Below are positions 31,151 to 59,238 of a stretch of DNA of 64,000 nt, in pieces. Made by a program: the position numbers and the translations under genes. The stretch's first letter is position 1. Each line of letters opens with the position of its first letter. The DNA comes from an uncultured Algibacter sp. Its GTDB lineage: Bacteria > Bacteroidota > Bacteroidia > Flavobacteriales > Flavobacteriaceae. The stretch spans positions 174,852-238,851 of the forward strand of contig NZ_CANKXK010000006.1 in NCBI RefSeq assembly GCF_947487605.1. The letters are read 5' to 3'. The notes beneath the pieces were generated by a model. It did no database searches, had not been told where the DNA came from, and was given only the letters and a program-made list of their open reading frames with translations.

Positions 31151-31193
31151 TAAATTTACCTTTATAAGGTATGGTTGACAATGGTATATATCT
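31151..31193 (-). promoter_or_regulatory. regulon promoter A (degenerate operator) for truncated usp
   Basis: Minus strand AGAT-ATAT-ACCA (31193-31182), two mismatches to TGAT-N4-ATCA, then exactly 23 nt, then TAAATTTA (31158-31151). The conserved spacing argues it is a decaying copy of the regulon promoter. Confidence 0.6.
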
Positions 31194-31195
31194 AT

Positions 31196-32026
31196 TCATT
31201 CTGGTATAACCAAAAATGGTATAATGGGCTGAAATCCTATTTTTTTTATGATGGGTTCGTTAATTATTTTTTCAATAAAACTGTGTTTATAGTTTACCAT
31301 AGCGAGAATATCTATCTCTAATTCTTCAATAAAATCATTAATTTCAACTGCTATTTTAGCATACTTGGGCATCCAATGAAGGCTGTGTTCATAATTACTC
31401 AAATAGGTTTGTAACATTATTATATTATACTCTTGTATATCATTTAGTTTTTCTTCTTTATTTATATGTACAATTCTAATTTTAGAATTATATAAATCTG
31501 CTAACTGTTTTATAGGGTACAGTTCTTTATTCTCATAAAACCGATTGAAATCTGTTGGAAACGCTATTTGTTTTGGGCTTACAAAGCTGTATTCTTCTGG
31601 GACAATTAATATGGGACAACCTCTAATACCTTTTATAACGTGTATTGTGTTACTGCCAAAGAAAATTTCTTTTGCGCCAGTAGCACCTTTTGTACCCATA
31701 ATTATTAAATCTATATTCCATTCTTTTATTGTGGCTTTAATAGCTTTTTTTAAATCTTTGTTACTTAAAACTATTTGAAAATCATGGTTTGCATTGGCAT
31801 TATCACTTTCTGCCAATGCTTTTAAATCCAATAATTCTTTCATAGCAGCTTCCTGCATGGTTTTTAATAGTTTATTTGAAAGATTAGAAAGAGTTGATAT
31901 TTTTATTATTGTAGAGTTTAAAAAATAAAATTTGCATTCTACATCAGCAAAAAGCTTTAAGGCATAAACAGCAGCACTCCACGAGTTATCTGAAAAATCT
32001 GTTGGTAATAAAATGTGTCGTTTCAT
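31196..32026 (-). CDS. universal stress protein, two Usp domains
   Basis: 276 aa with tandem UspA folds (about 1-145 and 150-276). The first domain has ILLPTDFSDNSW and the ATP-binding signature MGTKGATG followed nine residues on by GSNT, so it should bind ATP. The second domain lacks that signature (degenerate). Cytoplasmic stress effector; target unknown. Third gene of a tight cluster (10 and 23 nt gaps), probably transcribed from promoter B at 33801. Confidence 0.9.
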   Translation of the reverse strand: MKRHILLPTDFSDNSWSAAVYALKLFADVECKFYFLNSTIIKISTLSNLSNKLLKTMQEAAMKELLDLKALAESDNANANHDFQIVLSNKDLKKAIKATIKEWNIDLIIMGTKGATGAKEIFFGSNTIHVIKGIRGCPILIVPEEYSFVSPKQIAFPTDFNRFYENKELYPIKQLADLYNSKIRIVHINKEEKLNDIQEYNIIMLQTYLSNYEHSLHWMPKYAKIAVEINDFIEELEIDILAMVNYKHSFIEKIINEPIIKKIGFQPIIPFLVIPE

Positions 32027-32036
32027 GATTAAATTT

Positions 32037-32879
32037 TTATAATTTTGCTGGAATTACCATGAAAGGAATGTTTAAATGAAACCCTATTTGGTTTATGGTA
32101 TTTTTGAAAAATAAATTTTCGAAAAACGAATGTTTGTTGTTAATCATAACCAGCAAGTTTACTCTGGTCTTTAATTGAAAATTTGTAATTGCATCAAAAA
32201 CATTTTGGTTGCTTATACTATGAAATAAGTGTGCTTCTTTTTTAAAATACGTTTCTAATACTTTTTTATTGACCTTTTGGATTTCAGATAAGTCATATCC
32301 GTAAGTTGCATTTAAAATATTAACTCTTGCATTAAAAAGTGAAATGATATTAATGATAGGGTTTATATGACGACCTTTATAATTAATCTCATAATCTGTT
32401 GGAAATAATACCTCATGTGGGGCTTCAAAAACAAAACCATCTGGTATTGCAATTACAGGACATTTTGCATTTTTAAAAACATGAACCGTGTTCGAACCAA
32501 ATAAAACCTCAATAGCACCTGTAGCACCTTTTGTGCCCATAACCACATAATCTATAGCCTTTTTTTCAACAACTTCCTTTATTTCTGGAATCAACATATT
32601 AAATGCTACCATAGTTTCTATAGTATGTTTTGGATTTTTAAACTTTGTGGCTATTCTTGTTTTAAAATTATCTAACTGCTCTAAGGCATTTTCTCTAACA
32701 GTATCGCCTAAACCAAATTGTGCTGGATTTCCCAAAACATATTCTGCATCATAAATTACTGGTGTGTATGTATGTAATAGATAAAATTTACAGATTTCGT
32801 TTTTAAATAATTGCAATGCAAATTTTATGGCATTCCAAGAATTCTCTGAAAAATCGGTAGGAAGAAGAATATTTTTCAT
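32037..32879 (-). CDS. universal stress protein, two Usp domains
   Basis: 280 aa. First domain NILLPTDFSENSWNAIKFAL and ATP motif MGTKGATG...GSNT; second domain without the motif, ending FMVIPAKL. Clear paralogue of both neighbours. 10 nt upstream of the next usp gene, so operonic. Confidence 0.9.
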   Translation of the reverse strand: MKNILLPTDFSENSWNAIKFALQLFKNEICKFYLLHTYTPVIYDAEYVLGNPAQFGLGDTVRENALEQLDNFKTRIATKFKNPKHTIETMVAFNMLIPEIKEVVEKKAIDYVVMGTKGATGAIEVLFGSNTVHVFKNAKCPVIAIPDGFVFEAPHEVLFPTDYEINYKGRHINPIINIISLFNARVNILNATYGYDLSEIQKVNKKVLETYFKKEAHLFHSISNQNVFDAITNFQLKTRVNLLVMINNKHSFFENLFFKNTINQIGFHLNIPFMVIPAKL

Positions 32880-32902
32880 GATACTAAATTTTAAATTTTT
32901 AC

Positions 32903-33751
32903 TTAATTGCGTTTCATATTCTGCAATGCTAAAAATGGAATATCTAGATTTAAACTCAATTCATCTATTGAAGACTTAAATAGTATATTTCCTAAAAAAG
33001 AATGAGTTGTATTTACCATTACAAGCATATCAATAGGGTGCTCTTTAATGTACTTGTAAATTGTATTAATAATATGTTTACTACTTTCTATTTTAAAGTT
33101 GATTGTACTTTTACATAGCTCCTCTCTAATAAAATCTTTATTGTCTTGTTGTCTACGTGATAGTTTACTGCTTTTAGATATATAGAGTATATCTACTATA
33201 GTCCTGTATGGTGATATCATTTCGCAAAGTAATTTTAGTTCCCGTCTTTTGTAGGGTATCATGTAATTAGTTGGAAAAAGAATATGCTTAGGTTGCGTGT
33301 ATTTGTAATTTTCAGGTATAGATAATACTGGACATTGTACGTATTTTATAACTTGTAAGGTGTTGCTTCCAAAGGTTAACTTTTTGTCATTGGTTTTCCC
33401 TTTGGTTCCCATAACTATAATATCAATATTTTCTTGATCTACAATTCTATCGGTTTCATTGAGAAGTAAATTATTTGCAGAAATTGTATAAAAAGTGTGT
33501 CTGGGGTTAGGAGATATATTAATAATAGAGCTTTTAATATTTTGTAGCTGCTCATCAGATTTTTTACTAATTATTGAGCTTACCTTATTTAACATTTCTC
33601 CTGCTATCAATTCCTTGTCAGAATAAATATCATTTTGGTGAGCATGCATGATATGGAATTCGCTAACCTCATACTTAAAAAGATCTGTAGCATATCTTAA
33701 AGCATTCATTGCGTTTTCAGAAAAATCGGTAGGAATTAGTATTTTTCTCAT
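32903..33751 (-). CDS. universal stress protein, two Usp domains
   Basis: 282 aa from the ATG at 33751 (MRKILIPTDFSENAM); the ATG at 33763 would add four residues without family support. ATP motif is MGTKGKTN...GSNT, where the second Gly of GxxG is changed (KGKTN), so ATP binding may be weaker. First gene of the usp triplet under promoter B. Confidence 0.9.
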   Translation of the reverse strand: MRKILIPTDFSENAMNALRYATDLFKYEVSEFHIMHAHQNDIYSDKELIAGEMLNKVSSIISKKSDEQLQNIKSSIINISPNPRHTFYTISANNLLLNETDRIVDQENIDIIVMGTKGKTNDKKLTFGSNTLQVIKYVQCPVLSIPENYKYTQPKHILFPTNYMIPYKRRELKLLCEMISPYRTIVDILYISKSSKLSRRQQDNKDFIREELCKSTINFKIESSKHIINTIYKYIKEHPIDMLVMVNTTHSFLGNILFKSSIDELSLNLDIPFLALQNMKRN

Positions 33752-33769
33752 GGCTAAAAGCATTATCTC

Positions 33770-33812
33770 TAAAATTAAATACTAAACCGCTTGGATACAA
33801 TGATATATATCA
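33770..33812 (-). promoter_or_regulatory. regulon promoter B for the usp triplet
   Basis: Operator TGATATATATCA (33812-33801), 23 nt, -7 box TAATTTTA (33777-33770). The start codon follows 19 nt later. No separate -33 box is needed if the operator-bound activator replaces it. Confidence 0.88.
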
Positions 33813-33962: not shown

Positions 33963-34138
33963 ATAAAACAAGAAACAGGAAGCATACACTTCCTGTTTCA
34001 AGTAGGAATTCAATTTTATTATTTAATTTTTAACCTTAAACAACCCATTGCAAAACAACAAATAAAATTAATTAACCAAATAATACTATTAAACTCCAAG
34101 ATTTTTAAACTGCTATAATGCAAAGAACGTAATTAATT
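33963..34138 (-). ncRNA. candidate stress-induced small RNA (about 175 nt)
   Basis: Promoter C (operator 34186-34175, -7 box 34151-34144) predicts a start near 34138. A perfect 11-bp hairpin (33999-33989 with 33982-33972, 6-nt loop) followed on the minus strand by TTGTTTTATA ends it near 33963. The only ATG inside opens a 9-codon frame with no ribosome site. No credible gene is on the other strand. It lies between two usp units of the same regulon. The hairpin could also end transcripts from the upstream usp gene. Confidence 0.65.
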
Positions 34139-34143: not shown

Positions 34144-34186
34144 CTAATTTACAGAGCTATATTCTATAAGAAAATGATATCCATCA
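34144..34186 (-). promoter_or_regulatory. regulon promoter C for the small RNA
   Basis: Operator TGATGGATATCA (34186-34175), 23 nt, TAAATTAG (34151-34144). The operator overlaps the stop codon of the upstream 132-aa gene. There is no start codon at a usual distance downstream. Confidence 0.85.
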
Positions 34187-34582
34187 GTTTTCAAAACCTA
34201 TTGGTAAAATTCCATAAGCCATATTAAGCAAAAACAATCCTGTAAAAAATAACATGATATAAATGAGCTGTACTAATTTTACATTAACAAACTTTGGCAT
34301 AACTACTGTACGCTTTGGAAATATAAACAAGGATAAGCCTATGAAAAGAGAAATCCATCCAATAAGTGTTATTAGGAACTTCCAATTTGCTTCCCATATA
34401 TTATGAAATAAAATATTTAGCAAACCCACAATTATGGCAATAAATGATGAAATAATTAGAAATTTTTCATCATTCAAATCATTAAAAATCTGTTTGATTC
34501 GCCTAGGGTTAAAACTTAATATAACGAAAAAGATGATTAGGTACCAGCCCCAAAATTTTGCTAAAAAAATTGAATTATCCAT
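34184..34582 (-). CDS. small integral membrane protein (132 aa)
   Basis: Four predicted membrane helices (about 8-22, 40-60, 68-87, 102-122) with a conserved-looking PRR loop after the first. No family recognised. Starts 6 nt after the usp gene at 34589, so it is in the same operon under promoter D. A membrane partner of the stress response is plausible. Confidence 0.75.
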   Translation of the reverse strand: MDNSIFLAKFWGWYLIIFFVILSFNPRRIKQIFNDLNDEKFLIISSFIAIIVGLLNILFHNIWEANWKFLITLIGWISLFIGLSLFIFPKRTVVMPKFVNVKLVQLIYIMLFFTGLFLLNMAYGILPIGFEN

Positions 34583-34588: not shown

Positions 34589-35437
34589 TTATGTTTTTTC
34601 ATGTAAAACTAAAAAAGGTATTTCTGTATGATAGCTTATTTCTTCAACTTTAGAATGAAATAAAATTTGTTGAAAATAATTTAAGTTTTTTGCTACCATG
34701 CATATCATATTTATATTCCTGCTCTCTACAAAACACTGTATAGCGTCCTCCACTTTTTTATTAGTTAAATAATAAAAACTATGGTTTAAGTGATTAAAAT
34801 AGTCATCCAATAATTCTCGATTTTTATCTTGGTCGATATTTAAAAGCGTTTTCTTCTTTTTAATATGAAGAATTCTTAATGCCGATTGGTACGTTTCTAT
34901 AATTTCGGAAAGTGGTTGTAATATTTGTATATCGTAGGTTAATGAAAAATCTGTAGGAAATGCTATTTCTTTCAATTTAACAAATTTGGCACTTTCTGGT
35001 ACTGCTAAAGTGGTGCATTTTACTTTCGTTATAACATCTCCCGTATTACTACCAATAATCATTTTTTTTAAACCAGACGCACCTTTAGTACCCATAACAA
35101 TAAAGTCTATCTTTCTTTCTTCAACATGTTTTCTAATAGATTCTATAAAAAAGTTGAAATCTGAAAGTTTATAAAATCGATGATTTTTATTGGGTAAAAA
35201 ATCTTTTATAATACGTTTTAAAATTTTTCGTAATTTTTGTTTTGCTGGTTTAGCATAGACATCTTCTACAACTTGTTCTGTAGCTATATATGGAGAACCG
35301 TTAATTATATTGTCACTTACTCTATTTACATGTAATAAGTAAAAGTTACAAGGTTCTTTTTCAAAAAAATTGATGGCATATTTTATAGCATTCCATGAAT
35401 TTTCTGAGAAATCGGTGGGTAATAATATATTTTTCAT
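34589..35437 (-). CDS. universal stress protein, two Usp domains
   Basis: 282 aa. NILLPTDFSENSWNAIKYAI at the start; ATP motif MGTKGASG...GSNT. The region 60-80 has a basic insertion (KPAKQKLRKILKRIIKDF) not seen in its neighbours. First gene of a two-gene operon behind promoter D. Confidence 0.9.
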   Translation of the reverse strand: MKNILLPTDFSENSWNAIKYAINFFEKEPCNFYLLHVNRVSDNIINGSPYIATEQVVEDVYAKPAKQKLRKILKRIIKDFLPNKNHRFYKLSDFNFFIESIRKHVEERKIDFIVMGTKGASGLKKMIIGSNTGDVITKVKCTTLAVPESAKFVKLKEIAFPTDFSLTYDIQILQPLSEIIETYQSALRILHIKKKKTLLNIDQDKNRELLDDYFNHLNHSFYYLTNKKVEDAIQCFVESRNINMICMVAKNLNYFQQILFHSKVEEISYHTEIPFLVLHEKT

Positions 35438-35458: not shown

Positions 35459-35501
35459 CTAATTTACAGCTAAGTCGTTTTAGATAAAATGATATTAATC
35501 A
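35459..35501 (-). promoter_or_regulatory. regulon promoter D for usp and membrane protein
   Basis: Operator TGATTAATATCA (35501-35490), 23 nt, TAAATTAG (35466-35459), start codon 21 nt further on. Confidence 0.88.
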
Positions 35502-35524: not shown

Positions 35525-36580
35525 CTAAGAAATTCGTTCTAATTGGTGAATATCTATCACCTTAATATTTCGCCCTTCAGCTTTAATAATTCCTTGTTTT
35601 TTAAACTCTGTTAAGGCTCTAATTAAGGTTTCTGGTGCAATTCCTGCAACACTAGCCAAATCGTTTCTTGATATTCTAATTGGATCATCGGGTTTGCGAT
35701 TAATTTTTTGAGCAAATTTTAAAATTGTAGCTGCTGTTTTTTTATTAACTGTACCATAAGCCATTTGTAATAGTTGTTCTTTAACATTAGACAAATCATG
35801 AGTTAATAATTCGATAAGTTCTAATACTACTTTAGGATTATTATCAAGAATATTATTAAATTCAATAATTGAAATACCAACTAATTTTGTGTTTACAATG
35901 GCTGTTGCCGTTTCCTTATGAGCTATGCTTTGTGTAAACGATGTGTACCCAAACAAATCATCTTCTTTATACAATGCGGTTACTAGTTCTTTACCTTGCT
36001 CATCTATTCTATAACATTTTATTGTACCACGATTTATTAAATAGATATAATTGGAATGATCGCCTTCATGATAGATAACATCATCTTTTTTAATGATAAA
36101 TTCTTCACCATAATCATCAAAAAAAATTTTTAAGTCGTTAAGTGTTTTTATTTCGTTAGCATGCTCCTCAATAAAATCACTTTTTTGGCTGTTTTTTAAT
36201 TCTCGTAATAAAGATATTTTTGCTAAACGGCTTTCAATAGCACAAATAAGATCCTCTTCTGTAAATGGCTTGGTAATATAATCATCTGCACCTAAATTCA
36301 TTCCCTTTCTAACATCGCTACGCTCAGTTTTGGCGGATAAAAATATAAAAGGAATATACTTTGTTAATTTACTTTTTGAAAGGATTTTAAGCGCACTATA
36401 CCCATCTAACTCAGGCATCATTATATCGCAAACAATAATATCTGGGTTTTCTTTTTTAGCTATTGCCACACCTGTTTTTCCGTTTGATGCTTTTAAAACT
36501 TTATAGCTAGATAACTCTAAAAGTTCTGCTGTGTTTTCTCTTAAAATAGCATCATCTTCAATAAGTAAAACGGTTTTCAT
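35525..36580 (-). CDS. response regulator fused to CRP/FNR transcription factor (REC-cNMP-HTH)
   Basis: 351 aa. REC domain 1-120 with acidic pocket E8-D9-D10, phosphoacceptor D52 (CDIMMPELDGY) and K104 (ITKPF). Cyclic-nucleotide-binding fold about 150-265. HTH about 303-330 with recognition helix APETLIRALTEF: E317 and R321 match the base-contacting Glu and Arg of CRP/FNR, but the CRP Arg (TGTGA-specific) is Pro316. There are no FNR-type clustered cysteines, so control should come by phosphorylation. Overlaps the kinase gene by 4 nt. Best candidate to bind the local TGAT-N4-ATCA operators. Confidence 0.92.
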   Translation of the reverse strand: MKTVLLIEDDAILRENTAELLELSSYKVLKASNGKTGVAIAKKENPDIIVCDIMMPELDGYSALKILSKSKLTKYIPFIFLSAKTERSDVRKGMNLGADDYITKPFTEEDLICAIESRLAKISLLRELKNSQKSDFIEEHANEIKTLNDLKIFFDDYGEEFIIKKDDVIYHEGDHSNYIYLINRGTIKCYRIDEQGKELVTALYKEDDLFGYTSFTQSIAHKETATAIVNTKLVGISIIEFNNILDNNPKVVLELIELLTHDLSNVKEQLLQMAYGTVNKKTAATILKFAQKINRKPDDPIRISRNDLASVAGIAPETLIRALTEFKKQGIIKAEGRNIKVIDIHQLERIS

Positions 36581-38457
36581 AGTTTTGCTATGTTTGGAAA
36601 TGTTATTGTAAAAATAGTGCCTACATTCTCTTTACTTTCAAAATAAATTGAGCCACCCAAGTTTTCCAAATGGTTTTTAGCAATATTTAAACCTATACCT
36701 GTACCTTGGATGTTAACAACATTTTCTGCTCTATAATAACGTTCAAAAATGCTTTTTTTATCTTTTTCTGGAATGCCAATTCCTTCATCTTTTACCGTAA
36801 GTGTGGTTAAAGTTTTATCTTGTTTAATTTGTAAATCTATAACAGATCCCTCTGCTGAATATTTTATTGCATTATGTAGTAAATTAAAAAATATTAACTG
36901 GAAAATTTTTTCATCTTGGTACAGCGATAAATCGTCAATATTTTCTGGGTATTTTATTTGTTGACCTTCTTTTAAAAGCATATTGGCATTGTAAACAACT
37001 TCATTAACAATTTTACTTAATTTAAAATGTCCAAACTTATAATTCACTTTACCAGTTTCTAATTTTTCAATCGATAAAAAGTCGTTTAGTATATTATTTA
37101 AAAAGTATACTTTATCTGTTATTATTTTTAAATGCTTGCCTCGCTTTTCTTGATGCTCGGTTAATTGATATTTGCTAAGTAATTGGCTAGATGTTAAAAT
37201 ACCACTTAATGGCGTTTTAAACTCATGAGACACTAGAGATAAAAATTTGGTTTTCAATTCATTAAGCTCTTTTTCTTTACTAAGTGCTACTTTAAGTTGT
37301 TGCGTTCTTTCTTCTACTTTATTCTCAAGCTTGGTCGTGTAGTTTTTTCGTTCTGTAATATCTAAAATTATAGCTACAAAAACATTTCTTTCTCCTAAAT
37401 TAGATAACTGTAAATGCACTTCTACAGGATACTTAGTGCCGTTTTTGCGTTGGTGTACCGTTTCGAATTCAACTTTTTCTACATTCTTTTTTAATAAAAT
37501 ATCAATAGTTTTTCTAAATTCGGCTCTATTATCATTTGGTTTTATATCTAAAGGGGTCATATTTTTTAATTCCTCAAGAGAGTAACCAATATTCTTTTGT
37601 GCACCATAGTTTACATTGATAAACTTTAATGTTTCGGTATCAAAAACATATATTTCATTTAACGATTCGTTAAAAATAGTTGCAAAGTGGTGGCGTTCTT
37701 CTTCAGAGTTTTTTTTTAATGTCACATCATTTTGAATACCTATAAAATTTGTGACTAGCCCCTTACTATCGGTAATTGGAAAAACGTACAAATCATTCCA
37801 AAACATAGTGCCATCTTTTTTATAATTACGAAGCGTAGCTTGACAACTTTCTCCATTTTTTATGGCTTCCCTTAACCTTTTAAGAGGCTCTTGGTCTCTG
37901 TCATTACCCTGCAAAAACCTACAGTTATGGTTTAGTATTTCAGCATCAGAATATCCAGTAAGGGTTTGAAAGGCCGAATTAAAATAAATAATAGGGTTAT
38001 CATGCTTTTGTGCATCTGTAATTATCACTCCATTCTTCGCAGATTGTAACGCCTGAGTTCTAAGCATCAAGTTTTTTTCAATTGCTTTTTTTTCTGAAAC
38101 ATCCCTAATTAAAGCCATTACATAAACCTTATTATAAATGGTAAATGGATTTAGTTCTGCCTCAATTGGGAAAATGGTACCGTCCTTTTTCAAACCATAG
38201 AGATCTTTTGCTTCTCCCATTTTTCGGCGTTTCCCTTTTTCGATAAATTTTTCAAAATATGCAGAATGGCTTGTATGATAATTAGATGGGAGAAGTAAAT
38301 TCAATTCCTTATTTATAAGCTCACTTTTAGGGTATCCAAAAATAGTTTCTGCCGACGTGTTGACTTCCATTATTTTTTGATGATTATCCACAATAATAAC
38401 GCCTTCAGAAACAATCTCTAAAAGAATATTGAATATTTCTTGGTCTTGCTGAAACAT
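36577..38457 (-). CDS. soluble histidine kinase with FixL-like PAS, LOV and third PAS domains
   Basis: 626 aa, no membrane helix. PAS1 (about 5-125) has YHTSHSAYFEKF, aligning His64 with the haem-ligating His of FixL, and the shared GLKKDGT turn; the FixL distal Arg is Lys. PAS2 (about 130-248) carries the LOV photocysteine motif NCRFLQG (Cys179) plus NYKKDGTMFWN and FIGIQNDVT with the flavin-contacting Asn211, Asn221 and Gln242. PAS3 is about 255-370. A coiled coil leads to HisKA (VSHEFKTPLSG, His411), N box (NLLHNA), G boxes DEGIGIP and GTGIGL. Partner is the overlapping REC-CRP gene. Transcribed from the left arm of operator E. Confidence 0.92.
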   Translation of the reverse strand: MFQQDQEIFNILLEIVSEGVIIVDNHQKIMEVNTSAETIFGYPKSELINKELNLLLPSNYHTSHSAYFEKFIEKGKRRKMGEAKDLYGLKKDGTIFPIEAELNPFTIYNKVYVMALIRDVSEKKAIEKNLMLRTQALQSAKNGVIITDAQKHDNPIIYFNSAFQTLTGYSDAEILNHNCRFLQGNDRDQEPLKRLREAIKNGESCQATLRNYKKDGTMFWNDLYVFPITDSKGLVTNFIGIQNDVTLKKNSEEERHHFATIFNESLNEIYVFDTETLKFINVNYGAQKNIGYSLEELKNMTPLDIKPNDNRAEFRKTIDILLKKNVEKVEFETVHQRKNGTKYPVEVHLQLSNLGERNVFVAIILDITERKNYTTKLENKVEERTQQLKVALSKEKELNELKTKFLSLVSHEFKTPLSGILTSSQLLSKYQLTEHQEKRGKHLKIITDKVYFLNNILNDFLSIEKLETGKVNYKFGHFKLSKIVNEVVYNANMLLKEGQQIKYPENIDDLSLYQDEKIFQLIFFNLLHNAIKYSAEGSVIDLQIKQDKTLTTLTVKDEGIGIPEKDKKSIFERYYRAENVVNIQGTGIGLNIAKNHLENLGGSIYFESKENVGTIFTITFPNIAKL

Positions 38458-38483: not shown

Positions 38484-38557
38484 TAAAAGTATGAATTATT
38501 CTAGGTGTAAATACTGATTTTTATCATATATAGACAGCATATAAATATGTAATTTTA
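38484..38557. promoter_or_regulatory. regulon promoter E, one operator with two divergent promoters
   Basis: The operator TGATTTTTATCA (38515-38526) is followed on the plus strand by 23 nt and TAATTTTA (38550-38557), and on the minus strand by 23 nt and TACTTTTA (38491-38484). The kinase-regulator operon and the TerB/thioredoxin/exporter operon thus share a single palindrome with identical geometry, implying positive autoregulation. Confidence 0.88.
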
Positions 38558-38577
38558 TTAAAATGATTTTTGTAAAA

Positions 38578-38985
38578 ATGACCACAAAAAAGAAAATGAC
38601 ACACACATTTTATCAAAATATTGGTAAGCTTTTTTATGCCCTAGCAGCATCAGATAAACAAGTACGTGATGAAGAATTTAATAAACTTAAAGTAATAGTA
38701 AAAAAACAATGGCTAAATGCAGAAATAGTTAAAGATGATCTTAACTCTAAAGCTGTTTACCAAATAGAGTATGTTTTTGAATGGTTGAACAAAAATGAAA
38801 AATTAAACGCTAAAATGTACTTTGATGATTTTTTGAAGTATAAAGAGAAGCATCCGCTTTTGTTTACTGAAGCTATTAAAAAACTGATACTAAAAACGGC
38901 TCATGCCATAGCTGCATCGTTTTCAGGTTTAAACAAATCTGAACTTATTATGTTGGCTAAACTAGATATAGAATTAAAAAGATAG
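38578..38985 (+). CDS. TerB-like small protein
   Basis: 135 aa, all-helical. FYALAASDKQVRDEEFNKLK and a later NKSELIMLAKL resemble TerB-like tellurite/stress proteins, which bind metal through Asp/Glu in this loop. Start at 38578 (MTTKKKMTH) because promoter E puts the transcript start near 38563, on top of the earlier ATG. 4 nt before the thioredoxin gene. Confidence 0.65.
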   Translation: MTTKKKMTHTFYQNIGKLFYALAASDKQVRDEEFNKLKVIVKKQWLNAEIVKDDLNSKAVYQIEYVFEWLNKNEKLNAKMYFDDFLKYKEKHPLLFTEAIKKLILKTAHAIAASFSGLNKSELIMLAKLDIELKR

Positions 38986-42326: not shown

Positions 42327-42369
42327 TGATTAATATCATTTTATATATTTTTTAATAATAGTAGCTTGA
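42327..42369 (+). promoter_or_regulatory. regulon promoter F in front of the J-domain relic
   Basis: Operator TGATTAATATCA (42327-42338), 23 nt, TAGCTTGA (42362-42369). The operator is intact although the gene behind it is broken. Confidence 0.8.
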
Positions 42370-46510: not shown

Positions 46511-46553
46511 TGATGCATATCATTGTAATGATACTACTTTAAAATTACATTAG
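46511..46553 (+). promoter_or_regulatory. regulon promoter H
   Basis: TGATGCATATCA (46511-46522), 23 nt, TACATTAG (46546-46553), ATG 26 nt later. Confidence 0.88.
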
Positions 46554-50338: not shown

Positions 50339-50438
50339 CAATAGAATACTGTAAACTGTTGCAGTATTCATTCAGAAAATAAAAATGATTATTCTGCATG
50401 ATTTTAAAAAGCTTGTAGGTATTAAAAATAAATTCAAA

Positions 50439-51518
50439 ATGAAAAAATACACATACATATTGACTATAATTTTAGCATCCATATTTATGGCTAGTTGTGG
50501 TAGCGATGATAAAAAAATATTGGCAGATAATTCGCCAATAATTAACGTTAAAGTCGATAAGGTTTCAGTTAATAAAAGGGGATCGTTTTTGTCTGCTAGT
50601 GGCAAAATTCAATCGGTTTATAACGCCGATTTAAGTACCCGAATCATGGGGTTTGTAACTCAAGTCCATGTAAATGTTGGCGATAAAGTTAGCAAAGGCC
50701 AACGACTTATTTCAATTAATAATGTAGACTTACAGGCTAAACAAGCTCAAGCTAACGCTAGTATTACAGAAGCCACTGCCGCATTTATAAATGCCGAAAA
50801 AGACTTTACCAGATTTAAAAATTTATTCAAAAACAATAGTGCCTCTCAAAAAGAGCTTGATGATATTACTGCTAATTATGAAATGGCTAAAGCACGTTTA
50901 GAAGCTGCTAATCAAATAAAAAATGAAGTTAATGCACAATTTGCGTACGCCAATATCTCAGCACCATTCAATGGAATAATAACTGGAAAATTTGTTAAAA
51001 AAGGAGATATAACACATATGGGAGCACCTTTAATATCTATTGAAACGCCTAATGCTTTTGAAGTGGTTGCCATGATTCCAGAAAATGAAATCTCTAAAAT
51101 AAAAAAAGGCACTAAAGTTGATATTCTAGCAAAATCTATTGATGAAGCTTTAAAAGGAAAAGTAACCGAGATAAGTACATCTGCTAAAAATACTGGTGGT
51201 CAATACTTAACTAAAATAGCATTAGATAAAACGAATGCCAATATTTTATCTGGAATGTTTGTTACCGTGTTATTTCCTTTTGAAAACCCAGAACAAATAG
51301 AAATGGTTTTAATACCTAAAAATGCTATTGTAAATAAGGGACAATTATCTGGGGTTTATACAGTAAGTCAAAATAATACAGCACTATTGCGTTGGTTACG
51401 TTTGGGTAAAACATATGGTGATTCCATAGAAGTACTATCTGGATTATCAACCAATGAATCCTATATAGTATCAGCAGATGGAAAACTATTTAATGGCGCA
51501 AAGATTAGTATTCAGTAA
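50439..51518 (+). CDS. RND efflux periplasmic adaptor (lipoprotein)
   Basis: 359 aa starting MKKYTYIL; lipobox FMASC. Lipoyl-like half VTQVHVNVGDKVSKGQRLIS, hairpin 85-165, second half YANISAPFNGIITGKFVKKG (each quoted within 20), barrel and C-terminal domain. Start at 50439 rather than 50385 because the signal peptide begins there. Joins the RND permease to the TolC-like channel. Confidence 0.9.
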   Translation: MKKYTYILTIILASIFMASCGSDDKKILADNSPIINVKVDKVSVNKRGSFLSASGKIQSVYNADLSTRIMGFVTQVHVNVGDKVSKGQRLISINNVDLQAKQAQANASITEATAAFINAEKDFTRFKNLFKNNSASQKELDDITANYEMAKARLEAANQIKNEVNAQFAYANISAPFNGIITGKFVKKGDITHMGAPLISIETPNAFEVVAMIPENEISKIKKGTKVDILAKSIDEALKGKVTEISTSAKNTGGQYLTKIALDKTNANILSGMFVTVLFPFENPEQIEMVLIPKNAIVNKGQLSGVYTVSQNNTALLRWLRLGKTYGDSIEVLSGLSTNESYIVSADGKLFNGAKISIQ

Positions 51519-51643
51519 GCAGTTACAAGTATATTCTGCAAGGATTTAAAAACCTTGTAAGGATAAGACATAAAAAGACAAGTATTAATTAAAAAAATCC
51601 ATATCAGTTTTCCTTTGTAGGGAAATTAAAAGGGCTTTAAATT

Positions 51644-54600
51644 ATGAAAGAAGGTTTAGCAGGAAAGATTGCCAAAAACTTTATAAACTCAAAGCTTACG
51701 GTACTTCTCATGATAGTATTCATGGTTATTGGCGTGTATAGTTCGTTTTTAATTCCGCGTGAAGAAGAACCACAGATTGATGTGCCTATAGCTGATATTT
51801 TTATTGGTTATCCTGGAGCAAGCCCTACCGAAGTTGAGTCTCGGGTTATAAAACCTTTAGAGAAGTTAATTTCGAATATTAAAGGCGTAGAATATGTGTA
51901 TTCTACTTCGATGCAAGAACAAGGGATGGTAATTGTGCAATTTTATGTGGGTGAAGATATTGAACGTTCATTTGTGAAATTGTATAATGAAATTAACAAG
52001 CATATGGATCAAATGCCTAAGGGCGTAACATTTCCATTAGTAAAAACACGTGCTATTGATGATGTGCCTGTTTTAGGCTTAACACTTTGGAGTGAAACCT
52101 ATGACGATTATCAATTAAAACAAATCGCAGAAGAATTAACAAACGAAATAGAAAAAGTTAGCGATGTCTCTGCAACCCAAAAAATAGGTGGTAGAAATAG
52201 ACAATTACGAGTGGTGTTGGACAAAGATAAATTAGCAGAAAGCGGACTGGATTTTTTATCGGTTTCTAAAATGATTAAAGCTAACAACCAACAGTTAAGT
52301 GCAGGAAATTTTGATAAAAATGATATTGAATTTTTAGTGTCTACAGGTAAATTTTTAGAAACCGTTGTAGATGTTGAAAACCTAGTAGTTGGTGTTCAAC
52401 AAAACCAACCTATTTATTTAAAACAGATTGCCACCATTATTGATGGTCCCGAAATACCAACAAATTATGTCTCCTTAGGCTTTGGTCAAGCTAGCGAAAA
52501 AGTGACTACATATAACTCTGAATATCCAGCAGTAACCATTTCAGTTGCTAAACGAAAAGGCGCAGATGCCATGAAAATTTCGGATATAATTATTGATAAA
52601 GTAGAACACTTGAAAACCAACTTGATCCCAGATGATGTGCATGTTGAAGTTACAAGAAATTATGGCGAAACGGCTTCACATAAAGTGTCCGAATTATTGA
52701 TGCATCTTATTGGCGCAATTATAGCGGTAACACTTGTAGTTATGCTAGCTATGGGTTGGCGTGGTGGCTTGGTTGTATTCTTGTCTGTTCCCATTACGTT
52801 TGCTTTAACCTTATTGAGCTACTATATGCTTGATTATACACTAAACCGAATTACATTATTTGCTTTGGTATTTGTAACTGGTATTGTGGTGGACGATTCT
52901 ATTATCATAGCCGAAAATATGCATAGGCATTTTAAAATGAAACGGCTTCCCTTTAAACAAGCAGCTCTATATGCCATAAACGAAGTAGGAAACCCTACTA
53001 TATTAGCAACTTTTACAGTAATAGCCTCTGTATTACCCATGGCTTTTGTATCTGGGTTAATGGGGCCATATATGAGTCCTATGCCTATTGGTGCCTCCTT
53101 AGCGATGCTATTATCATTATTTGTAGCCTTAACCATTACGCCTTATTTGGGCTATATTTTCTTGCGTGAGAAAGATAAAAAAGGAGGTAAACAAAAAGTT
53201 AAAAAGCCTATAGAAGATGGTTTCATTTACAAGGTATATTCAAAATTTGAAACTCCATTAATTGAAAACAAGAAAACACGATGGTTGTTTTTAGGTATCA
53301 CATTTTTATTACTTATGGGTTCTGTGGGACTATTTTTCACCAAATTAGTGGCGGTAAAAATGTTGCCTTTTGATAATAAAAATGAATTTCAAGTAGTTAT
53401 CGATATGCCTGAAGGTAGCACCTTAGAACGTACGGCTACTGTAACCAAAGAAATAGCGCAATATTTATCTTCCAGAACAGAAGTGGTAAATTATCAAAAC
53501 TATGTGGGAACCTCTGCCCCTATTACGTTTAACGGATTGGTACGTCATTACGACTTACGTGGCGGTAGTAATATGGCAGATATTCAAGTAAATCTTACCG
53601 ATAAAAAAGAACGAAGCCTACAAAGTCATGATATTGCAAAATTAATGCGTCCAGACATTCAAAAAATAGCCCAAAAGTATAAAGCCAATGTAAAATTAGT
53701 AGAGGTGCCACCAGGGCCACCAGTACTTTCAACCATTGTTGCAGAAGTTTACGGGCCTAATTATGATGCGCAAATTGAAGTAGCAAATAAAGTGCAGAAT
53801 ATTCTAAAAAATACTACCGATGTTGTGGATGTCGATTGGATGTTTGAGGCAGACCAAGTAGAATACAAACTTATAATCGACAAAGAAAAAGCTATGCTAT
53901 ATGGTGTTACGCCAGAGCAGATTGTATATACCATGAATATGGCATTGTCTAATAAAGCGGTTACTAATTTATATGATGAAAATGCTACAACTCAAGTAGG
54001 TTTGGTTTTAGCATTAGATGAAAAAGAAAAATCTACCATTCAAGATATTTCTCAATTAAAAGTAAAATCAAATCATGGGTATATGGTTCCTATTGGCAAT
54101 TTGGTAACTGTTCAACAAAATACAAAAGCCAAGAGTATTTACAGAAAAAACCAAAAGCGAGTGGTTTATGTTATGGCAGATATGGCAGGTACGTTAGAAA
54201 GCCCTGTTTATGTGATACTTGACATGGAAAAAAAATTAAAAGATATTAAACTTCCTGAAGGGTATAAAATGAACGAATTATATTTAAATCAACCCGATTT
54301 TGAAGACAATTACACCGTAAAATGGGACGGAGAATGGCAAATAACTTTAGAAGTTTTTAGGGATTTAGGAATAGCCTTTTTAGGGGTTATTATTATCATT
54401 TATATCTTGATAGTCGGGTGGTTTCAAAACTTTAAAGCACCTGTGGTTATGATGGTTGCCATACCCCTATCATTGATAGGTATTGTTTTAGGGCACTGGC
54501 TTATGGGCGCATTTTTTACAGCCACTTCATTTATTGGCATGATTGCACTTGCTGGTATTATGGTAAGAAATTCGGTATTACTTATCGATTTTATAAACTT

Positions 54601-54838
54601 AAGGTTAGCCGATAACATTCCATTAAAACAAGCTGTAATTGAAGCTGGAGCAGTGCGTACCACACCCATACTGTTAACTGCTGGAACGGTTGTTATTGGT
54701 GCATTTGTAATTCTATTTGATCCCATTTTTCAAGGTTTAGCCATTTCACTAATGGGTGGTACCATTGTAAGTACGTTTTTAACTCTATTGGTAGTGCCTT
54801 TGGTTTATTATATGATTGAGCGCAAAAACTATAAATAG
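51644..54838 (+). CDS. RND efflux permease (HAE-type)
   Basis: 1064 aa proton-driven pump of 12 helices with two large periplasmic loops (about 40-345 and 570-895). Proton relay TGIVVDDSIIIAENM in helix 4. The N-terminal signature YPGASPTEVESRVIKPLEK is of hydrophobe/amphiphile efflux type. The HME-specific metal-site methionine pattern is not apparent, so drug or lipid export is more likely than copper export, in spite of the copper receptor nearby. Confidence 0.92.
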   Translation: MKEGLAGKIAKNFINSKLTVLLMIVFMVIGVYSSFLIPREEEPQIDVPIADIFIGYPGASPTEVESRVIKPLEKLISNIKGVEYVYSTSMQEQGMVIVQFYVGEDIERSFVKLYNEINKHMDQMPKGVTFPLVKTRAIDDVPVLGLTLWSETYDDYQLKQIAEELTNEIEKVSDVSATQKIGGRNRQLRVVLDKDKLAESGLDFLSVSKMIKANNQQLSAGNFDKNDIEFLVSTGKFLETVVDVENLVVGVQQNQPIYLKQIATIIDGPEIPTNYVSLGFGQASEKVTTYNSEYPAVTISVAKRKGADAMKISDIIIDKVEHLKTNLIPDDVHVEVTRNYGETASHKVSELLMHLIGAIIAVTLVVMLAMGWRGGLVVFLSVPITFALTLLSYYMLDYTLNRITLFALVFVTGIVVDDSIIIAENMHRHFKMKRLPFKQAALYAINEVGNPTILATFTVIASVLPMAFVSGLMGPYMSPMPIGASLAMLLSLFVALTITPYLGYIFLREKDKKGGKQKVKKPIEDGFIYKVYSKFETPLIENKKTRWLFLGITFLLLMGSVGLFFTKLVAVKMLPFDNKNEFQVVIDMPEGSTLERTATVTKEIAQYLSSRTEVVNYQNYVGTSAPITFNGLVRHYDLRGGSNMADIQVNLTDKKERSLQSHDIAKLMRPDIQKIAQKYKANVKLVEVPPGPPVLSTIVAEVYGPNYDAQIEVANKVQNILKNTTDVVDVDWMFEADQVEYKLIIDKEKAMLYGVTPEQIVYTMNMALSNKAVTNLYDENATTQVGLVLALDEKEKSTIQDISQLKVKSNHGYMVPIGNLVTVQQNTKAKSIYRKNQKRVVYVMADMAGTLESPVYVILDMEKKLKDIKLPEGYKMNELYLNQPDFEDNYTVKWDGEWQITLEVFRDLGIAFLGVIIIIYILIVGWFQNFKAPVVMMVAIPLSLIGIVLGHWLMGAFFTATSFIGMIALAGIMVRNSVLLIDFINLRLADNIPLKQAVIEAGAVRTTPILLTAGTVVIGAFVILFDPIFQGLAISLMGGTIVSTFLTLLVVPLVYYMIERKNYK

Positions 54839-55639: not shown

Positions 55640-55682
55640 TGATGAGCATCATTGCCTACACTACTTTATGGGCTTAACTTTA
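55640..55682 (+). promoter_or_regulatory. regulon promoter I
   Basis: TGATGAGCATCA (55640-55651), 23 nt, TAACTTTA (55675-55682). The ATG at 55668 is inside the promoter, so the gene starts at 55710. Confidence 0.88.
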
Positions 55683-55709
55683 TTTCATATTAACCAAAAA
55701 GTTATTATC

Positions 55710-56207
55710 ATGAAAAAATTAATGCTTGGTTTATTTTTATTAGGATTAACCACCCAAGTTTATGCTCAAGGCTCCGAAACGTTTCCTGCGGTATACATCG
55801 TCCATAACTACAAATATTTAAGTGATGTAAACTCTAAAGAAGCCGCTATGCCAGTAGAAGAACTACATTTAAAAGTGAGTGACTTTAATGTAAAAGAATT
55901 AGATATCTATGCAGATGAATATGATTTATATGAAGTTTACTTTGTAATTCCTGAAGGAAAAATATTAGCTTCCTATGATTCGGAAAGTAATTTACTAAGA
56001 ACAATAGAAAGATACAAAAACATCAATTTACCTGAATCTGTTTTGGAATCTGTGTCTACTAGATTTCCAAATTGGGCCATATCTAAAAATGCATATCTGG
56101 TTAATTACCATAATTCTGGTAAATTAAAAAAGCTTTACAAACTTACTCTTGAAAACGGCAACAAGCGTATTAAGATTAAAGTTGATGACAATGGAGATTT
56201 TTTATAA
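55710..56207 (+). CDS. exported PepSY-like protein (165 aa)
   Basis: Signal peptide 1-19 (cleaved after VYA). Two repeats of the strand-helix pattern seen in PepSY-like (DUF2874) periplasmic proteins: LYEVYFVIPEGKILASYD ... NLPESVLESVSTRFPNW, then NGNKRIKIKVDDNGDFL. Role unknown. Start chosen from promoter I. Confidence 0.65.
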   Translation: MKKLMLGLFLLGLTTQVYAQGSETFPAVYIVHNYKYLSDVNSKEAAMPVEELHLKVSDFNVKELDIYADEYDLYEVYFVIPEGKILASYDSESNLLRTIERYKNINLPESVLESVSTRFPNWAISKNAYLVNYHNSGKLKKLYKLTLENGNKRIKIKVDDNGDFL

Positions 56208-57163: not shown

Positions 57164-57166
57164 AAA

Positions 57167-57442
57167 ATGAAACAATTAACTAATTTACCAAACATTGGAA
57201 AAACGCTTGCTAAAAAATTGAATTCCGTTGGAATCGAAAATGAGAAAATGCTAAAAAAAATTGGCAGTAAAAATGCAATAGCTAAAATTATAACAATTGA
57301 AAATAGTGGTACTTGCATAAATATGCTTTATGCCATAGAAGGCGCTATACAAGGCATAAGATGGCACGGACTAGACAATAAAAAAAAACAAGAATTAAGC
57401 AATTATTATAAAACCTTGGAAAAAATAAAAACAATATCCTGA
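57167..57442 (+). CDS. TfoX C-terminal-domain-like protein
   Basis: 91 aa. LTNLPNIGKTLAKKLNSVGI is a helix-hairpin-helix motif, and ALYAIEGAIQG-like LYAIEGAIQGIRWHGL marks the TfoX_C domain. The N-terminal TfoX domain is missing, as is usual for stand-alone versions. Operonic with the CPBP gene. Its stop codon is the first TGA of operator J. Confidence 0.82.
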   Translation: MKQLTNLPNIGKTLAKKLNSVGIENEKMLKKIGSKNAIAKIITIENSGTCINMLYAIEGAIQGIRWHGLDNKKKQELSNYYKTLEKIKTIS

Positions 57443-57482
57443 TAAATATCATTTAAAAAAAACTGCAAGTATGCTAGATTTG
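57440..57482 (+). promoter_or_regulatory. regulon promoter J
   Basis: TGATAAATATCA (57440-57451), 23 nt, TAGATTTG (57475-57482), a perfect -7 consensus; ATG 22 nt later. Confidence 0.9.
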
Positions 57483-57503: not shown

Positions 57504-58403
57504 ATGAAAACAATAATATATGCCACAGATTGTACCAAAAATGATGCTTCTTCGCTAAAGTATGCTTATCGTTTAAGTTTTATTATGAATGCTAATTTAC
57601 ATATTTTGCATGTATATAATTTTCCTCCCATTGCATTTTCAACCATCCAACCCTTAGACTTGCTTAAAAAGCGAATGCATCAAGAACAAATAGAACTTGT
57701 AGATAGTTACTGTAAAACTCATCTTAAAAACGAATTTCATCAAAAACCTGTTATAACTCATGTTATTGAGAACAATTCGGTTTCTGAAAGTATTCTGCGT
57801 CTTTCTAAAATACTAAGCCCAGATTTAATTATTATAGGCATGAAAGATAAACATAGTGCTAGAGGTTACTTTTCTGGTAATATTGCAAATACACTCTTAG
57901 ATACCATCGAAATGCCATTGTTAATTGTCCCTAACAGCTTAGTTTATGATACAATATCTACGATAGTATATGCTACAGATTTTGAGGCAGCCGACATACT
58001 ATCCATTCAAAAACTAATAGAAATTGCTAAACCATTTTCTGCACTTATAGAAGTTATACATGTTTATAAAACAGATGAATACCCTGTTAAAGAGTATATG
58101 AAGCAATTTAAGAATACACTTTTAAACGAGGTTTCTTATCCAGAAATAGCCTTTAAAACCATTGCTTCTACCAGTATTAAATCAGGCTTACATAGTGTTT
58201 TAAATAATGAAAAAGCCAGTATGTTAGCTATGTTAGAACGCAAACATAATTGGAGTTTTTCTAATATTTTTCATAAAGATTTAGTGAAAGACATGGAAGT
58301 ATCATTAAAAATCCCTCTACTCGCTTTTAATAAGCATAGTGCAAAACTTCAAAACGAAAATGCTCTGTGTAATAATTATAAAAAAACACTAAGCTTTGGT
58401 TAA
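57504..58403 (+). CDS. universal stress protein, two Usp domains (divergent)
   Basis: 299 aa. TIIYATDCTKNDASSLKYA at the start and a second IVYATDFEAADILSI opening (about 155), so both domains are visible. The ATP signature is altered (IGMKDKHSARGYFSGNIA), unlike the clustered usp genes. Monocistronic behind promoter J. Confidence 0.88.
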   Translation: MKTIIYATDCTKNDASSLKYAYRLSFIMNANLHILHVYNFPPIAFSTIQPLDLLKKRMHQEQIELVDSYCKTHLKNEFHQKPVITHVIENNSVSESILRLSKILSPDLIIIGMKDKHSARGYFSGNIANTLLDTIEMPLLIVPNSLVYDTISTIVYATDFEAADILSIQKLIEIAKPFSALIEVIHVYKTDEYPVKEYMKQFKNTLLNEVSYPEIAFKTIASTSIKSGLHSVLNNEKASMLAMLERKHNWSFSNIFHKDLVKDMEVSLKIPLLAFNKHSAKLQNENALCNNYKKTLSFG

Positions 58404-58427
58404 GTAGGCTTCTAAATTAAAGGTTAT

Positions 58428-58552
58428 GGGGCTGTCCAAAAAAGGCGTCATTACTAACTTAAGTGAAGGAATCTTGAAAGTTCGAGTTATTTATTATTAG
58501 ATTACTTCAAAATAAAAAGTTTCTCGTAATAGCTACTTTTAAGGCAGCCTCC
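58428..58552. repeat. possible degenerate dispersed repeat GGGGCTGTCC ... GGCAGCCTCC
   Basis: The ends GGGGCTGTCC (about 58430) and GGCAGCCTCC (about 58542) are nearly inverted and the right one is followed by eight T. I recall GGCTGTCCAAAAA ... CGTCATT repeats in flavobacterial intergenic DNA. The right end may serve as terminator for the usp gene. The remaining 58553-58650 shows nothing. Confidence 0.4.
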
Positions 58553-58659
58553 TTTTTTTTAAACATCTCACTTGAGAAACGCAAAAACAACGATACAAAC
58601 TCTATTAACTATCGCACCAGAATAAATACACAGAATTGGCTAAAAATGTCTCTTTAAAC

Positions 58660-58702
58660 TGATGCATATCATTTCCAATTTTCACCTCCACGTGTATCTT
58701 TA
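58660..58702 (+). promoter_or_regulatory. regulon promoter K
   Basis: TGATGCATATCA (58660-58671), 23 nt, TATCTTTA (58695-58702); ATG 22 nt later. Confidence 0.9.
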
Positions 58703-58723
58703 TTAGCATAGAAAAACATAACA

Positions 58724-58966
58724 ATGAAAACGACATTGTACATACAACACTTAAAATGTGCTGATTGCGAATCAATCATTATAAAAAAACTTTCTGATTT
58801 AGAAAATATTTATAACATCACAATTAAGCTTCAATATGCTACTGTAACCTTTGAGCATGAAACAAAAGAAGATGTTGCCATAGTAAAACAAACACTTTCT
58901 AGAATAGGGTATCCTCCATATGGAGAAAAAAACACTTTCGCTAAAAAATCAAAATTAATAAATTAA
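58724..58966 (+). CDS. heavy-metal-associated (HMA) domain protein
   Basis: 80 aa, a single ferredoxin-like HMA fold: TLYIQHLKCADCESIIIKKL with the CxxC metal site (CADC), VTFEHETKE and IGYPPYG. Stand-alone copper- or zinc-type chaperone. Controlled by promoter K. May serve the copper uptake genes at 43-46 kb; no P-type ATPase is in the window. Confidence 0.85.
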   Translation: MKTTLYIQHLKCADCESIIIKKLSDLENIYNITIKLQYATVTFEHETKEDVAIVKQTLSRIGYPPYGEKNTFAKKSKLIN

Positions 58967-59195
58967 GAATCAAGTAATTAATACAACACACTATTAATTT
59001 AATTACTAAAACAAAATATATTCTAACGGTTGTATAGATATTAAAGTAGCAAGTGTTGGAGTCGTTTAATACCACGCTGGCTATGTATAAAAATTATTAT
59101 CATATATGATTTGAATGTGAATGATTGGCTAAATAAAAGTTAACACCTATTACAATTTATAATTGAAACTTTCATTTATAAAATTTGGTATAAAT

Positions 59196-59238
59196 TGATG
59201 AATATCATTGTTACAATGTTTATCCTTTACTACTTTAA
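59196..59238 (+). promoter_or_regulatory. regulon promoter L
   Basis: TGATGAATATCA (59196-59207), 23 nt, TACTTTAA (59231-59238); ATG 15 nt later. The 229 bp before it hold no gene. Confidence 0.88.

What the first reader, a model, noticed from the sequence alone, without database searches (positions are those of the whole stretch)
31151..59238. A regulon of thirteen promoters built on TGAT-N4-ATCA with invariant 23-nt spacing
Seen: palindromes at 33801, 34175, 35490, 38515, 42327, 46511, 55640, 57440, 58660 and 59196 match TGAT-N4-ATCA perfectly; 45924 has one and 31182 two mismatches. In every case, in the direction of the gene, exactly 23 nt separate the palindrome from a TAnnTTTG-like box. 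Extended consensus is roughly ACTGATGNATATCATT. Identical spacing in twelve sites (thirteen promoters) cannot be chance. Known: FNR/FixK-type proteins bind TTGAT-N4-ATCAA and activate from about -41. Inferred: one CRP/FNR-type activator controls usp genes, a kinase-regulator pair, a redox/export operon, metal and envelope proteins. I do not know this regulon as described in Bacteroidota.
Basis: partly seen in the sequence, partly recalled or inferred. Interest (0 to 1): 0.94.

Follow-up and report, generated by a model that had tools for sequence, protein, structure and literature searches.

The report
Stress regulon of a fused regulator
Flavobacteria carry a conserved DNA signal at a fixed distance in front of stress-survival genes and a predicted new structured RNA; it is likely read by an unusual fused signalling protein, encoded beside these genes, that is predicted to answer to oxygen or blue light.

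Summary
Ten of the 13 perfect TGAT-N4-ATCA palindromes in the window lie between genes, and all ten have a TAnnTT box exactly 23 nt downstream; the three inside genes have none. Around 80 relatives of the local regulator the box falls at offset 23 in 224 cases against 8.4 at other offsets; 223 of 224 are intergenic. A published flavobacterial start-site map puts the box at -12..-5, so the palindrome would centre at -41.5 (class II CRP/FNR geometry).

The likely regulator is in the window (35525-36580): a receiver domain fused to a CRP/FNR protein, beside its sensor kinase. In 199 related genomes the flavour CTGAT-N4-ATCATT averages 2.65 copies with this regulator, 0.29 without. Overlap with an FNR-type protein is not excluded.

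Targets (universal stress proteins, Hsp20, hibernation factor) recall the DosR and lxa regulons. One site drives no gene but an undescribed, tandemly repeated ~180-nt RNA in relatives, covariation-supported there; the window's copy is weak.

Most partner kinases keep a FixL/DosP-like PAS domain with the heme-ligand histidine; the window's adds a canonical LOV domain. Binding, phosphorylation, sensing and transcription are inferred. Autoregulation is at best weakly conserved.

The parts
35525..36580 (-). Likely regulator: receiver domain + cNMP-binding fold + HTH_Crp_2 fusion (P0001)
   Evidence: Pfam, three domains over cut-off; D9, D10, D52, S82, K104 and helix residues E317, R321 identical in 81 of 81
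36577..38457 (-). Sensor histidine kinase: FixL/DosP-like PAS, LOV, PAS, HisKA, HATPase (P0002)
   Evidence: Pfam; LOV-domain chain 7r5n matched at E 2.4e-31 over residues 132-253; PAS1 best hits DosP then FixL, E 1.1e-14 to 1.1e-11
31151..31193 (-). Decayed site (2 mismatches) with box at 31151-31158, before a truncated usp-like ORF (30876-31124, by eye)
   Evidence: sequence
33770..33812 (-). Spaced site before three usp genes (32903-33763, 32037-32879, 31196-32026)
34144..34186 (-). Spaced site CTGATGGATATCATTT...TAAATTAG before the predicted structured RNA
   Evidence: a perfect spaced site stands upstream of the RNA in 16 of 20 related loci
33968..34138 (-). Predicted structured noncoding RNA, one weakly matching unit, ending in a terminator-like hairpin
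   Evidence: model hit 33968-34115, 33.4 bits, E 5.6e-4, no stronger than hairpin-only reverse-strand hits in the same search; so it rests on hairpin, place and site
35459..35501 (-). Spaced site before usp 34589-35437 and a small ORF (34184-34582, no Pfam match)
38484..38557 (.). Bidirectional site: minus arm to kinase/regulator, plus arm to 38563-38985, thioredoxin-like 38990-39289 (by eye) and HlyD/FtsX/ABC genes to 42319
   Evidence: the 38563-type gene has a site in 28 of 80 loci, the minus arm is rarely conserved
42327..42369 (+). Spaced site before a short DnaJ-like ORF (42388-42558, by eye); 295 aa in L030
45924..45966 (+). Site with one mismatch before an ORF ending at 46468 (start probably about 45995)
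46511..46553 (+). Spaced site before the DUF6799 gene 46580-47233
55640..55682 (+). Spaced site before ORF 55668-56207 (start probably about 55710)
57440..57482 (+). Spaced site before usp 57504-58403
58660..58702 (+). Spaced site before an 80-aa HMA-like ORF 58724-58966 (name by eye, not scanned)
59196..59238 (+). Spaced site before ORFs 59253-59750 and 59761-60135 (Spore_YtfJ)

Best explanation
Twelve intergenic TGAT-N4-ATCA-type palindromes, each exactly 23 nt before a TAnnTT-type box, are predicted class II promoters likely activated by the receiver-CRP fusion protein encoded among them (35525-36580), which the neighbouring PAS/LOV histidine kinase (36577-38457) would phosphorylate. Phosphorylation of D52 would favour a dimer whose CRP-type helices (E317, R321) read TGAT/ATCA, centred at -41.5, where it could contact RNA polymerase bound at the -7 box in place of an upstream promoter element (not tested). 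The output would be a hypoxia/dormancy-like programme: universal stress proteins, small heat-shock protein, ribosome hibernation factor, chaperone, export and envelope proteins, and a structured RNA. The ancestral input is probably oxygen, through a FixL-type heme PAS; in the window's clade a LOV domain is added, so blue light or flavin redox is a likely second or replacement input. Shown by the calls: motif, spacing, intergenic placement, conservation, co-occurrence, gene order, domain make-up, RNA covariation in relatives. Inferred: binding, phosphorylation, signals, direction of regulation.
For: Spacing: in 80 loci, 291 palindromes against 19-82 for the 11 permuted controls; box at offset 23 after 224 of 582 oriented palindromes, mean 8.4 at other offsets; 223 of 224 intergenic; 205 of 224 precede an ORF within 300 nt, median 24 nt from box to ATG. 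Geometry: box at -12..-5 in F. psychrophilum (PMC9723704, passages), so centre -41.5. Regulator: 101 of 199 family genomes match P0001 at E 1e-40 or better (one only in part) and average 13.2 hits (control 1.15); the 98 others average 5.6 (control 1.41), p 9e-16. Flavour CTGATN4ATCATT: 2.65 against 0.29 per genome (74 of 101 against 20 of 98 with at least one); ATGATN4ATCATA: 1.62 against 0.94. C at -1: 135 of 224 near the fusion against 6 of 30 distinct sites from six fusion-less genomes, p 5e-5. In single-contig genome G148, 14 of 35 hits lie in the 58 kb holding the fusion gene. Helix residue 319 tracks base -1: 11 of 14 F loci against 2 of 57 L loci with sites have a T(-1) site. Kinase: just upstream of the fusion gene, same strand, in 79 of 80 loci, adjacent in 18 of 20 distant loci; in kinases without LOV the FixL histidine is kept in 65 of 66 and the arginine in 57 of 66; a distant partner's PAS matches a solved FixL at E 4e-32.
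Against: No binding, phosphorylation or transcript data. FNR-like proteins in the same genome (L024, L025) have similar E...R helices. One fusion-less genome, G121, has the RNA behind a perfect CTGAT site. An autoregulatory site is perfect in 1 of 76 relatives (random stretches 1.9 per 76), with one mismatch in 5 (1.2) and two in 15 (3.0). The helix-base and LOV/arginine correlations do not reach significance on tree-independent pairs. The window's kinase has K at the FixL arginine. Nine of 80 loci have no perfect spaced site in the DNA held. In 20 more distant loci only 4 of 60 oriented palindromes have the box at 23 (mean elsewhere 0.57).
Confidence: 0.7

Rival explanations
1. The sites belong to a conventional FNR-type regulator (the homologue with the KCEQC start in L024, or L025), and the fusion gene only lies nearby.
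For: L024 and L025 have cysteine-rich N termini and E...R recognition helices; genomes without the fusion keep 5.6 spaced hits on average, before Rrf2, cytochrome c, hydrogenase and deoC-like genes and, in 7 of 30 loci inspected, before fusion-type targets (names by eye).
Against: Flanks differ; the CTGAT...ATCATT flavour is nine times commoner with the fusion, sites cluster round the fusion gene, and base -1 tracks the fusion's own helix.
Confidence: 0.15
2. Fusion protein and FNR homologue both act on one overlapping set of promoters, as a two-input regulon without clean division.
For: Shared core motif and -41.5 geometry; both flavours occur in the same genomes; the window holds sites with several flanks; fusion-type targets keep sites in some fusion-less genomes.
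Against: The flavours separate statistically by presence of the fusion.
Confidence: 0.35
3. The signal is oxygen alone and the LOV domain is inert or only redox-tuned.
For: FixL-like PAS with the histidine in the window and in 74 of 78 kinases; LOV with its cysteine in only 10 of 79 relatives, plus one copy without it.
Against: The window's LOV keeps NCRFLQ and matches LOV-domain chains at E 2.4e-31 to 5e-24 among the 60 shown, while the FixL arginine is lost in 9 of 12 LOV-bearing kinases.
Confidence: 0.35

Closest known systems
FixLJ-FixK cascade (rhizobia; Burkholderia FixLJ and lxa locus, PMC6127331 passages)
   Same: FixL-like PAS kinase, receiver, CRP/FNR-type DNA binding to TGAT-N4-ATCA (FixK motif recalled), Usp and Hsp20 outputs
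   Different: FixJ and FixK functions lie in one protein; FixJ's LuxR-type output (recalled) is absent; Bacteroidota promoters; LOV in some kinases; a predicted RNA output
DosR/DevR dormancy regulon (Mycobacterium; comparison in PMC6127331 passages)
   Same: response regulator (recalled), many Usp proteins and an alpha-crystallin among targets
   Different: DosR has a LuxR-type HTH (recalled); here the HTH is CRP-type, the operator differs and a structured RNA is included
FNR/Anr class II promoters
   Same: palindrome core and -41.5 placement (recalled)
   Different: activity would be set by phosphorylation, not by an N-terminal Fe-S cluster; flanks differ; -7 box TAnnTTTG-like
LOV histidine kinases (YtvA-FixL and short-LOV-FixL chimeras)
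   Same: LOV upstream of a histidine kinase core
   Different: natural tandem of FixL-like PAS, LOV and PAS paired with a CRP-type output

Membership tests
CRP/FNR superfamily regulator | cNMP-binding fold plus Crp-type HTH | tested here: met
   PF00027 and PF13545 over cut-off
CRP/FNR class II activator | operator centred near -41.5 | tested here: met
   23-nt spacing with the -12..-5 box of PMC9723704; start sites in this organism not mapped, activation not shown
FNR proper | N-terminal cysteines for a 4Fe-4S cluster | tested here: not met
   P0001 begins with a receiver domain and has no N-terminal cysteine cluster (read by eye)
Phospho-acceptor response regulator | acidic pair, phospho-Asp, Ser/Thr, Lys | tested here: met
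   D9, D10, D52, S82, K104 identical in 81 of 81
FixL-type heme PAS | proximal His and distal Arg of FixL | tested here: inconclusive
   window has His, Arg is K; without LOV 65 of 66 His and 57 of 66 Arg
FixL-type heme PAS | binds heme and oxygen | not testable with these tools
   needs purified protein
LOV photoreceptor | adduct-forming Cys in NCRFLQ and overall similarity | tested here: met
   alignment to YtvA and short-LOV proteins
LOV photoreceptor | blue-light photocycle | not testable with these tools
   needs spectroscopy
DosR/DevR family | LuxR/NarL-type HTH output | tested here: not met
   output is HTH_Crp_2
Known Rfam RNA family | score above a family's gathering cut-off | tested here: not met
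   no hit in the window or in 6 loci apart from tRNA; best weak hit HrrF, 26.8 bits against cut-off 77

The most novel reading that the evidence does not exclude
Bacteroidota have a one-step FixL-to-(FixJ+FixK) system: an oxygen-sensing kinase phosphorylates a single fused receiver-CRP protein that switches on a DosR-like survival regulon and a tandemly repeated structured RNA; in the window's clade a LOV domain has rewired this switch to blue light.
Probability: 0.35. Interest if true: 0.92.

Novelty: new variant of a known kind. Interest (0 to 1): 0.8.

Why it matters
It gives a testable operator, regulator and geometry for a stress regulon in a family where my searches found no such regulon described; 101 of 199 genomes sampled match the regulator. 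A receiver fused to a CRP protein would merge two layers of the classical FixLJ-FixK cascade. The new RNA, within 5 kb of a fusion gene in 19 of the 24 fusion-bearing genomes where it was found, opens a question about RNA control during dormancy. The change of sensor domains, FixL-like PAS with or without LOV, makes the evolution of signal input on a fixed output testable.

Tried and rejected
Autoregulation of the kinase-regulator operon: the window's bidirectional site suggests it, but a perfect site is no commoner than in random stretches of relatives, so it is not claimed; near-sites are in excess and leave a weak version open. LOV gain with loss of the FixL arginine: 3 of 12 LOV-bearing against 57 of 66 LOV-less kinases keep it, but tree-independent pairs are too few (LOV needs 5 changes, at least 3 forced); suggestive only. 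Helix residue against flanking base: same verdict. Deeper conservation: 20 loci from other families showed weak motif excess (30 palindromes, controls 0-21), so the geometry is claimed only for Flavobacteriaceae. Fusion absence in motif-rich genomes was re-checked at E 1e-5 in 12 of the 98; none had a full-length match (best E 8e-27). Rows left out: in relatives only perfect TGAT-N4-ATCA with TANNTT was counted; the 80 loci are the best 80 of 568; one locus without a kinase and two short kinases are not in the kinase counts, four loci not; R1's reverse-strand hits (the symmetric hairpin, up to 39 bits) were not counted as units. Targets without the fusion were inspected in 30 loci, 5 from each of 6 genomes, of 95 hits there. 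No structure prediction was run. No paper on this fusion or regulon showed in the listings (open-licence PMC only; titles and abstract starts; four papers opened in passages or by term).
Full report
OBSERVATION. Thirteen perfect TGAT-N4-ATCA palindromes occur in the window (1.5 expected). The ten between genes all have a TAnnTT box exactly 23 nt on, in the direction of a gene or of the RNA below; the three inside ORFs (1057, 19745, 39145) have none. Sites 45924 (one mismatch) and 31182 (two) fit as well, and 38515 fits both ways. The site with two mismatches precedes a truncated usp-like ORF, as if operator and gene decayed together. In the whole genome (3.38 Mb, 87 contigs) there are 23 oriented hits against 7 for the reversed pattern; 12 fall in this 25.5 kb. 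Of the 11 elsewhere, two lie inside large ORFs (L002, L020), one overlaps the start of an opposing ORF (L003), and the other eight, like L003, precede an ORF in the right direction, by eye: pyruvate formate-lyase-like, phosphate acetyltransferase-like, formate-tetrahydrofolate ligase-like, CBS pair, usp, FadL-like, OmpW-like and a lipoprotein (names not scanned).

CONSERVATION. A 13-sequence alignment of the fusion regulator brought in the best 80 of 568 matching stretches, nearly all titled as Flavobacteriaceae. There the palindrome occurs 291 times against 19-82 for 11 permutations of its half-site, and the TAnnTT box peaks at offset 23: 224, against a mean of 8.4; the stricter TAnnTTTG gives 55 against 0.38. 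71 of 80 loci have at least one site. 223 of 224 are intergenic although 80% of the DNA is coding; the box on the wrong side gives 8. The consensus is asymmetric: AAC-TGAT-N4-ATCA-TTT. In F. psychrophilum, TAnnTTTG lies at -12 to -5 (PMC9723704, passages read); 23 nt upstream then puts the palindrome at -47..-36, centre -41.5.

REGULATOR. The window encodes a receiver + cNMP-binding + HTH_Crp_2 protein and, just upstream of it in the same direction, a PAS kinase. Homologues are numerous: 7814 of 8000 scored candidates reach E 1e-30, and the 120 listed all carry the three Pfam domains. Matches occur in 101 of 199 family genomes at E 1e-40 (one partial) and 37 of 247 genomes across the phylum at E 1e-60. 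The genome has five CRP-type HTH proteins over the cut-off; two others, FNR-like by their cysteines, have E...R recognition helices, so assignment needed tests. (a) Genomes with the fusion average 13.2 spaced hits, those without 5.6, reversed controls 1.15 and 1.41. (b) Split by flanks, CTGAT...ATCATT is 2.65 against 0.29, ATGAT...ATCATA 1.62 against 0.94. (c) In six fusion-less genomes 30 loci were inspected: many sites precede Rrf2, cytochrome c, hydrogenase and deoC-like genes, but 7 precede fusion-type targets (usp L121 and L130, HPF L132, MlaE-like L127, WG-repeat L124, HlyD-like L113, secreted L137), and some have no ORF start nearby (by eye). (d) 14 of 35 hits of the single-contig genome G148 lie in the 58 kb holding its fusion gene. 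(e) Base -1 and base +13 vary with helix residues 319 and 318 of the local fusion protein, in a consistent direction but not significant on independent pairs. Together these favour the fusion; joint control with FNR remains open and result (c) is why I put confidence at 0.7, not 0.75.

TARGETS. Clustered ORFs after sites in the 80 loci: Usp (82 sites, 51 loci), the family of 38563-38985 (28 loci, no Pfam match), HPF/S30AE (9), Hsp20 (8), an unassigned 150-aa family (8 sites, 7 loci), a family with a sub-threshold DUF3298 match (7), DnaJ-like (5), MlaE-like permease (5), M50-CBS protease (2), DUF302 (2), deoC-like (2), and single cases of ribonucleotide reductase and cbb3 oxidase; HPF, Hsp20, M50-CBS, DUF302, RNR and cbb3 were confirmed with Pfam on one representative each, the rest by eye or by window relatives. 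Usp and Hsp20/alpha-crystallin are also named for the Burkholderia lxa locus, where FixLJ/FixK-type control is discussed, and for DosR (PMC6127331, passages).

SENSOR. The kinase stands upstream of the regulator gene in 79 of 80 loci. Its first PAS is closest by sequence to solved DosP and FixL domains; a LOV-less relative's PAS is best matched by FixL 1d06 (E 6.6e-15) with ligand His and distal Arg aligned (residue roles recalled), and a distant partner by FixL 1dp6 at E 4e-32. The window's second PAS is a canonical LOV. Of 78 kinases, 66 lack LOV (His 65, Arg 57) and 12 bear it, one without the cysteine (His 9, Arg 3); the window has His and LOV, Arg replaced by K. Heme binding and photochemistry are predictions.

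STRUCTURED RNA. Site 34175 precedes no longer ORF. Downstream lies a noncoding unit ending in GAAACAGGAAG...CTTCCTGTTTC plus T-rich sequence. Looking behind the spaced sites without an ORF (19 of 224) showed 1-6 tandem units of about 180 nt in nine loci and in G148; hairpins in L034, L037 and L040 lack a perfect site (1, 2 and 1 mismatches). Two subgroups folded on their own give the same plan, a P1 hairpin, a long-range stem, inner stems and the terminator-like hairpin; a third gives it without P1, and the joint alignment of 34 units supports only the hairpin. Covariation: 23 double-change cells against 8.1 shuffled (0 of 500) in 9 sequences, 2-6 when slid; pairs with double change 11 against 6.2 (2 of 500); pair types not in excess. 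In 13 others 19 cells against 8.0 (0 of 500), 9 pairs against 5.2 (8 of 500). The long-range stem shows no double change within either subgroup, and tandem copies are not independent. The model finds the unit in 26 of 199 genomes at E 1e-3, 23 of them at E 6e-6 or better; 24 of 26 have the fusion, and in 19 of those 24 it lies within 5 kb of a fusion gene. Of 20 such loci, 16 have a perfect spaced site within 700 nt upstream, 11 of these CTGAT...ATCATT; one has one mismatch, two have two, and one at a contig end has none. The downstream control holds a perfect site in 7 of 20. The window's copy is a single weak unit (33.4 bits, no better than hairpin-only reverse hits) and was not found in the stricter genome search. 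No Rfam family matches. A regulatory RNA is the inference; its target is unknown.

LITERATURE. The listings showed no account of this fusion, regulon or RNA; PMC4558063 has no occurrence of the CRP terms tried; PMC2864571 lists other Bacteroidetes RNAs (passages).

Noticed in passing
window 33968-34138 (-); L031:12457-13035; L063:12581-13728; L075:4144-5109; L160:1549-2115: Undescribed structured noncoding RNA, about 180 nt per unit, up to six units in tandem, linked to the fusion regulator gene.
   Followed up: yes
window 36577-38457; L030-L035, L041, L054, L101, L102; L074: LOV domain in the partner kinase of some clades; L074 carries a LOV without the adduct cysteine (NLRFLQ).
   Followed up: partly
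window 42388-42558: DnaJ-like ORF behind a perfect site is only 56 aa here but 295 aa in L030.
   Followed up: no
window 30876-31124: Truncated usp-like ORF behind the only site with two mismatches.
   Followed up: no
L120, L122, L144, L119, L138: A second TGAT-N4-ATCA class, often ATATGATAAAAATCATAT, at the same spacing before Rrf2/cytochrome c, ferredoxin/oxidoreductase, hydrogenase and glutamate-cysteine ligase-like genes (by eye): probably an FNR-type regulon of the family.
   Followed up: partly
G121 (L239): A genome without a full-length fusion match still has the RNA behind a perfect CTGAT site.
   Followed up: no
window 49028-54838: Efflux genes (OEP, HlyD, AcrB-type) inside the cluster without a perfect spaced site of their own.
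   Followed up: no
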